From: an uncultured bacterium
Lineage (GTDB): Bacteria; Patescibacteriota; Andersenbacteria; UBA10190; CAIZMI01
Direction of reading: 5' to 3'
Assembly: GCA_903934015.1 (NCBI GenBank)
Contig: CAIZMI010000014.1
Location: 1 to 44,534 of the forward strand
DNA length: 44,534 nucleotides
Below are positions 1 through 1,926 of this stretch, piece after piece. How positions within the stretch are numbered: position 1 is the stretch's first letter; every line of letters begins with the position of its first letter. The notes under the pieces were generated by a model. The model was not told the origin of the DNA. It saw nothing but the letters and a program-made list of their open reading frames with translations, and searched no databases. The position numbers were made by a program, and so were the translations under genes.

Positions 1-79
1 CAATATATAATTTTTTGTCCTTACTACTACGTAATATATAAACATAGTACATGACACTTATTATTATACCGCATGGAAT

Positions 80-132
80 CGCACAGAACCATAAAGGTTC
101 TGTGCGCCCCGCACCTTTATGGTGCGTGGGCG
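80..132. repeat. Paired hairpins with complementary loops
   Basis: Two adjacent stem-loops. The first (80-106) has a perfect 11-bp stem closing an ATAAA loop. The second (105-132) has an 11-bp stem with one bulged T at 127 and a TTTAT loop. The cores ACCATAAAGGT and ACCTTTATGGT are exact reverse complements, so the loops could kiss or one hairpin could be an inverted copy of the other. There is no T-run after either stem, so neither is a classical terminator. The block sits exactly where the 3' part of the neighbouring tRNA-Gln should be. Confidence 0.75.
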
Positions 133-185
133 AACCAAGATAAGCAGCTCCAAAGGCTACTGTCCTGCCGTTAGACGACCCCGGA
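131..185 (-). tRNA. tRNA-Gln(UUG) remnant lacking its 3' part
   Basis: Read on the minus strand, this starts with a TCCGGGG acceptor strand, followed by a D arm (GTC/GAC stem around TAACGGCAG) and a perfect 5-bp anticodon stem GTAGC/GCTGC. The loop is CTTTGGA, giving anticodon TTG (Gln). The variable region and the start of the T arm (GGTTCG) follow. After TTCG the match ends: no T-stem partner and no CCCCGGA acceptor strand occur in the remaining 130 bases. The rest is replaced by a hairpin pair. It is therefore either a broken tRNA, one interrupted by an insertion whose 3' half lies outside the window, or an assembly error. It lies 55 bases downstream of dnaX in the same direction. Confidence 0.6.
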
Positions 186-240: not shown

Positions 241-1926
241 TTACCCCCCAACCAATTCCCCACCCAACACCGCCAAAGCGTCAGAGGTCGGGTTTGTGTT
301 TACCGCAACAGGTGTTTCAGCAAAAGCAATCACCGGATTGACCATTTTTGGTTCAGGTAAACGTAAAGCCGCCGCTTCGCTTTTCAAAGCAACTCGCATT
401 AATATTTTTTCACCAATCAAGCTAACCAAAAGATCTTCGAGGGACTCTCGAACCTGATTATCACCCAAACGTTCTTTATATAGGCTATATTCCGTGATCA
501 TGTATAACATATTTCCCCTAACAAGGCAGGGCTTACAAGCTTCAAGAGTAGAAATCAATAACGGATTAAGTTTTCCGGTTTTTTCCATGAATTGCGCCCA
601 AACAACCATCACTTTCTCTAAAAGCTCGGGATTTTCCGCCATGGAATTTTGTTGTTCCGTCATCGCTTTATTTTGCGAACCATTTAAAATCGGAATTATT
701 TTTTCCTTGGCAATAATCGGCGCGCCCATAATTGGTGAGGCCATTTTTCCCACCGCGACAGCTTGAGCATTTTGTTGGGGAACGACATTTGGTGCTACCA
801 AATTTTGTGGTTTATTTGTTTGCGCCTCGCCACACCATTCCATGATTACCAGTTCTAACGGTAATTCTTCATATGTAACATCACGCATTTCTGACTTGGC
901 ACGTAAAAATAATCTTAATAATTTCGTAAAACTTTCTAACGAAAAATTTTTCGCGTGATTATGCAGTTTTTCAGTAACTTCATTATCAAACGATTCACTG
1001 TGGTTTTGTGCAACAGAAAAAGTAGCAACAGCACGAAGATAACGTGTAATATCATCCGTAAAGCGCCTCAAGGATGCGCCTCTTTCCATTACCCTTCTTA
1101 ACTGCTGAAGGGAACCTGAAACGTTTTTTGTTAAAATATTTTCAACAAATATTTGCACTTCCTTAAAACCAATAACGCCAAGCATTGTTTCAACATCGGA
1201 AATTTTAATTATTGTGTCTTGCATTGATAATACCTGCCCCAATAAACTTTCCGCATCACGAAAACAACCCTCGCTATGACTGGCAATTAAACTAATAGCC
1301 GAATCCTCAATCTCAACATTTTCAATCAAACAAATCTTTTTAAGTCTATTGATTAATTGTTCCGTCGTAGCCCTACGAAAAATAAACGTTTGGCACCGTG
1401 ACTTAATAGTTTCGGGAACTTTGTGTAATTCAGTCGTTGCTAAAATAAAAATCGCGTGACTTGGCGGTTCTTCTAAAGTTTTAAGTAACGCGTTAAATGC
1501 TTCCTTTGTAAGCATGTGCACCTCATCAATAATGTAGACTTTATATTTTCCGGCGGTTGGAGCAAGACTAATTCGATCTTTTAACGCACGAATCTCATCA
1601 ATACCCCGATTACTGGCGGCATCAATTTCAATCAAGTCCAAACTGGCCTTATTTTGAAAAGCGATACACTGAGGACAACTACCACACGGTTCACTTCCTT
1701 GAGGGCTTGAGCAATTAAGACGTTTCGCCATAATACGTGCGATTGTGGTCTTGCCTGTACCGCGAGGACCCGAAAACAAGTATGCATGCGTAATTTTCCC
1801 CTCACTTAAGGCATTTTTTATAACAACTAAAATGTGTTCCTGCCCTGAGACATCTGACAATGCTTGTGGTCGATGCTTGCGATAGAGAGTGCGCTCTTGG
1901 TTTGAACTTTGAGTAGTATTTTCCAT
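241..1926 (-). CDS. dnaX: DNA polymerase III subunit gamma/tau
   Basis: Clamp-loader ATPase of the replicative polymerase, acting at the fork. The 561-residue protein shows the family layout: an RPxxLSDVSGQE start region, Walker A GPRGTGKT (53-60), four zinc-binding cysteines (72, 81, 84, 87), the DEVH Walker B (134-137), an LLKTLEEPP stretch, and the SRC sensor (176-178). The C-terminal 200 residues are low in motifs, as in tau-type tails. It starts with ATG at 1926, with no clear SD. It is the last gene of the 3199-241 leftward block, 138 bases after the GtrA-like gene. I did not see an A-rich slippery site that would make a separate gamma form. Identification is secure. Confidence 0.96.
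   Translation of the reverse strand: MENTTQSSNQERTLYRKHRPQALSDVSGQEHILVVIKNALSEGKITHAYLFSGPRGTGKTTIARIMAKRLNCSSPQGSEPCGSCPQCIAFQNKASLDLIEIDAASNRGIDEIRALKDRISLAPTAGKYKVYIIDEVHMLTKEAFNALLKTLEEPPSHAIFILATTELHKVPETIKSRCQTFIFRRATTEQLINRLKKICLIENVEIEDSAISLIASHSEGCFRDAESLLGQVLSMQDTIIKISDVETMLGVIGFKEVQIFVENILTKNVSGSLQQLRRVMERGASLRRFTDDITRYLRAVATFSVAQNHSESFDNEVTEKLHNHAKNFSLESFTKLLRLFLRAKSEMRDVTYEELPLELVIMEWCGEAQTNKPQNLVAPNVVPQQNAQAVAVGKMASPIMGAPIIAKEKIIPILNGSQNKAMTEQQNSMAENPELLEKVMVVWAQFMEKTGKLNPLLISTLEACKPCLVRGNMLYMITEYSLYKERLGDNQVRESLEDLLVSLIGEKILMRVALKSEAAALRLPEPKMVNPVIAFAETPVAVNTNPTSDALAVLGGELVGG

What the first reader, a model, noticed from the sequence alone, without database searches (positions are those of the whole stretch)
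80..185. tRNA-Gln(UUG) cut at the T loop and joined to a hairpin pair with kissing loops
The tRNA is normal through the anticodon arm and up to TTCG, then changes abruptly to two hairpins whose loops (ATAAA, TTTAT) and flanks are exact reverse complements. The break in the T loop is a known place for integrase or intron insertion. If this is the only tRNA-Gln gene, the 3' half must come from elsewhere.
Basis: partly seen in the sequence, partly recalled or inferred. Interest (0 to 1): 0.55.

Follow-up and report, generated by a model that had tools for sequence, protein, structure and literature searches.

The report
Nuclease element inside a bacterial tRNA gene
The cut-off tRNA is one end of a tiny mobile DNA element that breaks a tRNA gene in its T loop, carries two hairpins and a GIY-YIG nuclease gene, and sits beside a complete replacement copy of the same tRNA; the same arrangement recurs at many tRNA genes in related small-genome bacteria.

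Summary
Window 185->131 (minus strand) is the 5' part of tRNA-Gln(UUG). It is followed by two hairpins inserted exactly between TTCG and ATTCC of the T loop. At 52->1 comes the start of a GIY-YIG nuclease gene, cut by the contig end. Contig C28 of the same genome begins with the end of a GIY-YIG gene and then an intact tRNA-Gln(UUG). The layout [tRNA 5' part - hairpin pair - T-loop remainder - (nuclease gene) - complete tRNA of the same kind] recurs at other tRNAs of this genome and in other genomes of the phylum. Twenty-one of 21 sampled inserts fold as two hairpins; kissing loops occur only in the window copy. At tRNA-Gly the broken outer copy equals the sister species' intact gene (55/55), while the complete inner copy differs (46/56): the replacement tRNA most likely came with the element. 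Of 30 best GIY-YIG loci, 21 lie within 300 bp of an intact tRNA/tmRNA, all on the same strand (17 of 26 without training loci). Best explanation: a free-standing GIY-YIG homing-type element that splits a tRNA gene and supplies a substitute; not a split tRNA, intron or integrase site. Cleavage and mobility are inferred, not shown.

The parts
131..185 (-). 5' part (nt 1-57) of tRNA-Gln(UUG), the broken 'outer' copy, ending in GGTTCG of the T loop
   Evidence: sequence; RF00005 22.9 bits, below cut-off; coordinates; same locus order dnaX -> tRNA-Gln(UUG) in sister genome G001
107..130 (-). hairpin H1 (CCCACGCACC ATAAA GGTGCGGGG; C-G of TTCG may extend the stem)
   Evidence: folding; near-identical H1 at other tRNAs of the same genome
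80..106 (-). hairpin H2 (CGCACAGAACC TTTAT GGTTCTGTGCG)
   Evidence: folding; double hairpin in the same place in 21 of 21 inserts compared
75..79 (-). ATTCC: remainder of the T loop and start of the 3' T-stem strand of the outer tRNA
   Evidence: sequence; in other copies this segment matches the neighbouring tRNA's own T loop (Val ATACC, Gln-CUG AGTCC, Glu ATTCTC, Ser AATCTC)
1..52 (-). start of a GIY-YIG nuclease ORF (MYYVYILRSSKDKKLYI...), truncated by the contig end
   Evidence: translation; aligns with N-termini of complete ORFs in tRNA elements, which match PF01541 where tested
241..1926 (-). dnaX (DNA polymerase III gamma/tau) upstream of the broken tRNA, same strand; locus anchor
   Evidence: ORF; 80% identical orthologue 770 bp upstream of an intact tRNA-Gln(UUG) in G001

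Best explanation
The feature is the left end of a very small free-standing homing-type element in a tRNA-Gln(UUG) gene. Complete anatomy, seen in relatives: [native tRNA nt 1-57] - two hairpins - [ANNCC, the T-loop remainder] - GIY-YIG ORF of about 85 codons - [complete tRNA of the same isotype, its nt 1 within about 20 nt of the ORF stop]. Proposed mechanism: the GIY-YIG protein cuts an empty tRNA gene in or near the T loop (or, for sister subfamilies, the anticodon or D loop). The break is repaired from an element-bearing allele, so hairpins, ORF and a whole substitute tRNA are copied in. The native gene is left as a dead 5' part and the substitute keeps the cell alive. The hairpin pair sits exactly at the presumed cut site in the dead copy, so it probably destroys the recognition site there; it could also shape or terminate the transcript. 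Later the ORF can be lost, leaving [5' part - hairpins - short spacer - tRNA]. SHOWN: anatomy, insertion position, recurrence, same-strand coupling of ORF and tRNA, a different inner tRNA at tRNA-Gly, empty sites in the sister species. INFERRED: DNA cleavage, homing, role of the hairpins, and that contig C28 carries the rest of the window copy.
For: (a) Window 52->1 encodes a GIY-YIG N-terminus. C28 starts with AKRREKYFKTTKGRNVIKIMLRSYF..., a GIY-YIG C-terminus (50% identity over 28 aa to a complete relative, E = 3e-8 for that single comparison), and runs straight into intact tRNA-Gln(UUG). (b) The same layout with a complete ORF: G000 C55 tRNA-Gly, G001 tRNA-Lys(CTT), G005 tRNA-Tyr, G163 tRNA-Ser and tRNA-Cys, G120 tRNA-Leu(UAA). 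PF01541 was confirmed on four of these ORFs; invariant residues Y5, Y15, G17, R25, H29, E60 in seven. (c) ORF-less copies at Val(CAC), Glu(CTC), Ser(GGA), Gln(CTG) repeat the tRNA 5' part at 100% identity. (d) Upstream tRNA copies in G000 and G001 end at nt 53-59 in nearly every case, and downstream copies mostly begin at 54-58. (e) Empty versus filled: the outer Gly part equals G001's intact gene 55/55, while the inner tRNA-Gly matches the outer 46/56. At Gln(CTG) the flank before the OUTER copy matches G001's flank (37/43, score 56, shuffle maximum 26), while the spacer before the inner copy does not. (f) GIY-YIG loci: 21 of 30 profile hits, and 8 of 30 hits of the general Pfam search, have an intact tRNA/tmRNA within 300 bp, all on the same strand; chance about 4.6% each. 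(g) L271 shows a second insertion into the already substituted tRNA (tandem ORF - 5' part - hairpins - ORF - tRNA).
Against: No cleavage or mobility has been shown. The intact inner tRNA still has the T loop, so if the enzyme cuts any GGTTCGANNCC the element would cut itself; extra specificity or weak activity must be assumed. Identity of outer and inner parts (56/56 at Glu in both species, although their spacers have diverged) calls for gene conversion or another constraint. Hairpin sequence is largely uniform within a genome but differs between genomes, which homing alone does not explain. Genes downstream of the C28 tRNA are not those downstream of G001's tRNA-Gln, so the C14-C28 join is likely but unproven. 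The loci counted in (f) are the best scorers, not a random sample.
Confidence: 0.72

Rival explanations
1. Split tRNA gene: the 5' half is joined in trans or by splicing to a 3' half elsewhere, with the hairpins or kissing loops holding the halves together.
For: The tRNA is truncated; in archaeal split tRNAs the halves carry extra complementary sequence (general knowledge).
Against: A complete tRNA-Gln(UUG) exists. The hairpins pair internally, not with a partner, in 21 of 21 inserts, and loop complementarity is absent in 20 of 21. In the compared copies a complete tRNA of the same identity is adjacent.
Confidence: 0.03
2. Classical tyrosine-integrase element or island integrated at the T loop, with hairpins as attachment-site decoration.
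For: T and anticodon loops are known integrase cross-over places (general knowledge). Some copies have the mirror layout, complete tRNA then a 3' remnant.
Against: The span between remnant and complete tRNA is about 100-420 bp and holds at most a GIY-YIG ORF, no recombinase. The window type duplicates the 5' part, not the 3' part that integrase islands usually bring. ORF and nearest tRNA are on one strand in all counted cases, often with the ORF stop at the tRNA start.
Confidence: 0.06
3. Passive history: tandem duplication of a tRNA gene, then insertion of a REP-like or RPE-like palindromic repeat pair into one T loop and decay of its 3' end; the GIY-YIG ORF is an unrelated passenger.
For: H1-like hairpins also occur alone away from tRNAs (C15:30054, C44:35632, C5:8018). 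ORF-less copies have 100% identical 5' parts.
Against: 5' parts stay identical while the 3' part is missing beyond 2-5 T-stem bases. The outer copy is native and the inner one different at tRNA-Gly. GIY-YIG ORFs are strongly and strand-specifically tied to tRNAs across the phylum.
Confidence: 0.12
4. Regulatory or decoy RNA: outer 5' part plus hairpins is a retained, functional RNA (tRNA-like decoy or leader controlling the downstream tRNA).
For: At Glu(CTC) the outer 5' part is 56/56 identical to the inner tRNA in both G000 and G001, while spacers diverged and hairpins changed completely but kept their structure.
Against: Diverged or split outer copies (Ala 82%, Gly 80%, Lys and Pro interrupted by further inserts) argue against a general constraint. 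Many tRNAs lack it. Close direct repeats can be kept alike by gene conversion.
Confidence: 0.06
5. Assembly artefact at a contig end.
For: The window copy lies within 190 bp of the contig end; at least C5 and the G001 C8/C27 ends also break in such elements.
Against: Equivalent complete copies lie well inside contigs in G000 (C15, C17, C34, C55) and in other genomes.
Confidence: 0.01

Closest known systems
Mobile endonuclease ORFs with host-gene duplication in fungal mitochondria (Allomyces macrogynus atp6; Glomus atp6, atp9, cox2, nad3; PMC3630166)
   Same: An endonuclease ORF is inserted in a gene together with a foreign copy of the gene part it disrupts; the native part is displaced and matches the sister species while the inserted copy does not.
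   Different: There the C-terminal part of a protein gene is replaced (LAGLIDADG at Glomus atp6); here the whole tRNA is supplied, the enzyme is GIY-YIG of about 85 aa, the host is a bacterium, and a hairpin pair marks the break.
Free-standing GIY-YIG homing endonucleases of T-even phages, above all SegB (PMC2988022; PMC13096335)
   Same: Intron-less GIY-YIG gene lying among tRNA genes; SegB breaks DNA and amplifies a tRNA-Tyr + segB unit by recombination between the tRNA 5' region and the segB 3' end.
   Different: SegB sits between tRNA genes in phages; here the gene splits a tRNA at a fixed position, has hairpins, and lies in bacterial chromosomes.
GIY-YIG ORFs in rRNA insertion sequences of CPR bacteria (PMC11270868)
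   Same: Probably the same kind of bacteria; GIY-YIG proteins in inserts that match neither group I nor group II introns.
   Different: Host gene is rRNA; [quoted passage not shown]
Double-hairpin elements of fungal mitochondria; Rickettsia palindromic elements
   Same: Short mobile-looking palindromes or hairpin pairs inserted into genes.
   Different: Here the pair is tied to one place in tRNA genes and to a nuclease ORF plus a substitute tRNA; kinship was not tested, the resemblance is from general knowledge.
UPF0213 GIY-YIG proteins (PDB 1zg2, 1ywl)
   Same: Closest solved structures by sequence (E about 1e-11).
   Different: Those are described only as hypothetical UPF0213 proteins; no element context was examined.

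Membership tests
Free-standing GIY-YIG homing endonuclease gene | GIY-YIG catalytic domain with conserved catalytic residues | tested here: met
   PF01541 above cut-off in four complete relatives; Y, Y, G, R, H, E invariant in seven. For the window itself only the first 17 codons are present.
Free-standing GIY-YIG homing endonuclease gene | not housed in a self-splicing intron or intein | tested here: met
   No intron family matches in the window or in five element loci searched against Rfam; the ORF has its own start and stop next to a complete tRNA.
Free-standing GIY-YIG homing endonuclease gene | enzyme cuts the empty allele and drives its own copying | not testable with these tools
   Only indirect: empty sites in G001 and a different inner tRNA-Gly in G000.
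Mobile ORF with host-gene duplication (Allomyces/Glomus type) | inserted copy restores the host gene; displaced native part matches the sister species | tested here: met
   tRNA-Gly: outer 55/55 to G001, inner 46/56 to outer; inner tRNA complete. Inconclusive for the window's own Gln: its outer part is about equally far from the G001 gene and the C28 tRNA (48/57, 47/57).
Tyrosine-integrase tRNA-targeting element | encodes a tyrosine recombinase; usually brings a tRNA 3' part | tested here: not met
   Complete elements span about 100-420 bp with no room for, and no sign of, an ORF other than GIY-YIG; the window type duplicates the 5' part.
Group I intron in tRNA | group I core that rejoins the tRNA halves | tested here: not met
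   No Rfam match; outer 3' half absent directly after the insert.
Split (trans-spliced) tRNA | matching 3' half gene and no intact gene of that identity | tested here: not met
   Intact Gln(UUG) on C28.
Double-hairpin or palindromic repeat element | two adjacent hairpins at the insertion point | tested here: met
   21 of 21 inserts fold as two hairpins.
Double-hairpin or palindromic repeat element | dispersed independently of gene context | tested here: inconclusive
   Single H1-like hairpins occur elsewhere, full pairs mainly at tRNAs.

The most novel reading that the evidence does not exclude
A phylum-wide class of selfish 'tRNA-replacing' elements: a minimal GIY-YIG nuclease gene coupled to a complete tRNA that invades tRNA and tmRNA genes at loop positions, kills the resident copy and takes over its function, so that essential tRNA genes of these bacteria are repeatedly replaced by foreign alleles and become dependent on the parasite's own copy.
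Probability: 0.45. Interest if true: 0.85.

Novelty: new variant of a known kind. Interest (0 to 1): 0.72.

Why it matters
GIY-YIG genes were found in 189 of 192 genomes sampled from this phylum. Tying one subfamily of small stand-alone ones to tRNA genes gives these genes a biology: they would be homing parasites that avoid killing their host by supplying the gene they break. It would explain partial tRNA copies and some contig breaks near tRNAs in these genomes, and would be a route for lateral replacement of essential tRNA genes in bacteria with small genomes. It is directly testable with one small protein and one 75-bp target.

Tried and rejected
Kissing loops as a conserved feature: rejected, 1 of 21. 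Rfam families for the hairpins and for a second insert family: none. IS200/IS605-like or REP transposition of the hairpins (target TTCG): considered because the pair follows TTCG; not pursued because no such transposase was sought or seen and the GIY-YIG link is stronger. Shared genes between C28 and the G001 region downstream of tRNA-Gln(UUG), to support the C14-C28 join: none at 1e-6. Window's outer Gln as the sister species' native allele: not supported, it is about equally far from the G001 gene and from the C28 tRNA. Word searches of the held papers for GIY-YIG with CPR, Patescibacteria or Parcubacteria found no description of these elements, but most subscription papers are not held. Centring a search on a named locus to confirm the phylum name was not possible; 'Patescibacteria' is inferred from named loci with the same inserts, such as Portnoybacteria, and from genome size.

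Full report
WHAT IS THERE. The feature is on the minus strand. Reading from 185 down: the 5' part of tRNA-Gln(UUG) (185-131), hairpin H1 (130-107), hairpin H2 (106-80), ATTCC (79-75), a 22-nt spacer, then ATG at 52 opening MYYVYILRSSKDKKLYI up to the contig end. The whole window is contig C14 of a 1.34 Mb, 64-contig genome. The tRNA part scores 22.9 bits with the Rfam tRNA model, below the cut-off. The hairpins are far more stable than chance. The bases after H2 resume the T loop, so the pair is an insertion between nt 57 and 58.

NOT UNIQUE. A DNA search of the same genome finds the same thing at other tRNAs. At Val(CAC), Glu(CTC), Ser(GGA) and Gln(CTG) the order is: tRNA 5' part through TTCG, H1, H2, T-loop remainder, AT-rich spacer of roughly 40-60 nt, complete tRNA of the same identity. 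A survey around the 42 ARAGORN-predicted tRNAs finds upstream same-strand 5' copies at ten of them: Val, Glu(CTC), Ser(GGA), Gln(CTG), Arg(GCG), Arg(CCG), Gly(CCC), Ala(CGC), Pro(CGG), Lys(TTT). With the window's Gln(UUG) that makes eleven, and contig C5 starts inside a twelfth at Ala(TGC). About a dozen tRNAs have a 3' copy downstream, three of them weak matches, mostly beginning at nt 54-57. In the sister genome G001 5' copies are seen at Lys(CTT), Pro(CGG), Arg(TCT), Arg(CCG), Glu(TTC), Glu(CTC), Ala(CGC) and Val(CAC). Not all of these carry the hairpin pair: Arg(GCG), Arg(CCG) and Pro(CGG) in G000, and Arg(TCT) and Arg(CCG) in G001, carry another insert family at the same place.

OTHER GENOMES. 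A covariance model of the hairpin pair hits 13 of 380 genomes of the phylum. Most of the hits inspected are in a partial tRNA beside a complete tRNA of the same isotype; some weaker ones are single hairpins away from tRNAs. Two layouts occur: 5' part then complete tRNA (window type), and complete tRNA then GGTTCG - hairpins - 3' part (tRNA-Thr, Lys, Leu, Val). Twenty-one inserts with very different stems all fold as two adjacent hairpins; only the window copy has complementary loops.

THE NUCLEASE. In several copies the spacer is a GIY-YIG ORF of about 85 codons: G000 tRNA-Gly, G001 tRNA-Lys, G005 tRNA-Tyr, G163 tRNA-Ser and tRNA-Cys (anticodon-loop break), G120 tRNA-Leu(UAA) (anticodon-loop break). 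Four were tested and match PF01541; seven align with invariant Y5, Y15, G17, R25, H29, E60. The nearest solved structures by sequence are UPF0213 proteins. In the window-type layout the ORF usually stops within about 20 nt of nt 1 of the complete tRNA, or inside it. The window ORF fragment is the N-terminus of such a protein. C28 begins with a matching C-terminus followed by intact tRNA-Gln(UUG). In G001 the order dnaX then tRNA-Gln(UUG) on one strand supports that the window's broken copy sits at the ancestral locus. The C14-C28 join itself is inferred.

HOW GENERAL. PF01541 is in 189 of 192 genomes sampled; a profile from the tRNA-linked proteins hits 203 of 287. Of its 30 fetched best loci, 21 have an intact tRNA or tmRNA within 300 bp, all on the same strand. 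Without four loci that contributed to the profile it is 17 of 26. Of the 30 fetched best loci of the general Pfam search, 8 do, again all on the same strand. Chance is about 4.6% per locus. These are top scorers, not a random sample.

FOREIGN TRNA AND EMPTY SITES. At Gly(CCC) the broken outer copy equals the intact G001 gene over 55/55 bases, whereas the complete inner copy differs (46/56 to the outer copy): the resident was broken and a different tRNA took over. At Gln(CTG) the G001 site is empty, and its upstream flank matches the flank of the outer copy (37/43), not the spacer before the inner one. L056, L062 and L082 (Liptonbacteria, Portnoybacteria) show an outer tRNA interrupted by an insert with inverted-repeat ends that carries a complete tRNA of the same isotype (read by eye). 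L294 shows an outer tRNA-Ser split around ORF plus a different tRNA-Ser, and L271 a repeated insertion into an already substituted tRNA-Leu.

MECHANISM. The best fit is a free-standing homing-type element that carries the gene it breaks. Precedents: fungal mitochondrial endonuclease ORFs with a duplicated host-gene end (PMC3630166), and phage SegB, a GIY-YIG nuclease that amplifies a tRNA-Tyr + segB unit by recombination (PMC13096335). The step from anatomy to cleavage and homing is inference. The role of the hairpins is the weakest point: they sit where the cut should be and would remove the site; transcript processing is an alternative.

OPEN POINTS. Hairpin sequence is largely uniform within a genome but different between sister species, even at the shared Glu(CTC) element whose spacer is recognisably homologous and whose 5' parts are 56/56 identical in both. 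This suggests ongoing gene conversion or renewed insertion, and keeps a regulatory role possible at low probability. Why the intact inner tRNA is not cut is unknown.

Noticed in passing
L244 (G000:C18:20682-20983), L243, L236, L258, L183, L159, L175, L187: A second, unrelated insert family at T loops: a structured unit of about 100 nt (..GCCGGAG-stem-GAGGCGGTGGCCAGCCCGAG-stem-GAGGCGAGGCC..), three tandem copies at tRNA-Arg(CCG), in several cases preceded by an inverted T arm; no Rfam match in five loci searched.
   Followed up: partly
L223 (G001:C13:99813-99870 region): tRNA-Asn interrupted in the anticodon loop by what looks by eye like a group I intron.
   Followed up: no
G000:C15:30054, C44:35632, C5:8018; L086, L103: Single H1-like hairpins away from tRNAs, and apparently in frame inside a UvrD/PcrA-like helicase gene (L086, L103; L103 also seems to hold an intein), resembling Rickettsia palindromic elements.
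   Followed up: partly
L154 (G000:C18:1567-1788), L275, L292: GIY-YIG ORFs lying just downstream of tmRNA on the same strand.
   Followed up: partly
L273, L276, L283, L290: Another subfamily: the ORF follows a complete tRNA with CCA, separated by a shared hairpin-rich stretch beginning CGAAGTA..ACTTCATGGCAGGCCA.
   Followed up: no
L302:3120-3803 (G001, between dnaX and tRNA-Gln(UUG)): Opposite-strand 227-aa ORF with only weak helix-turn-helix matches at the locus where the window genome has the GIY-YIG element.
   Followed up: partly
L231:1-150 (G000:C59 start): A long near-perfect palindrome at the contig start, probably a chimeric assembly end.
   Followed up: no
G000 L251 versus G001 L186: The upstream flank of the tRNA-Glu(CTC) element in one species looks, by eye, like the inverted downstream flank in the other, suggesting an inversion at the element.
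   Followed up: no
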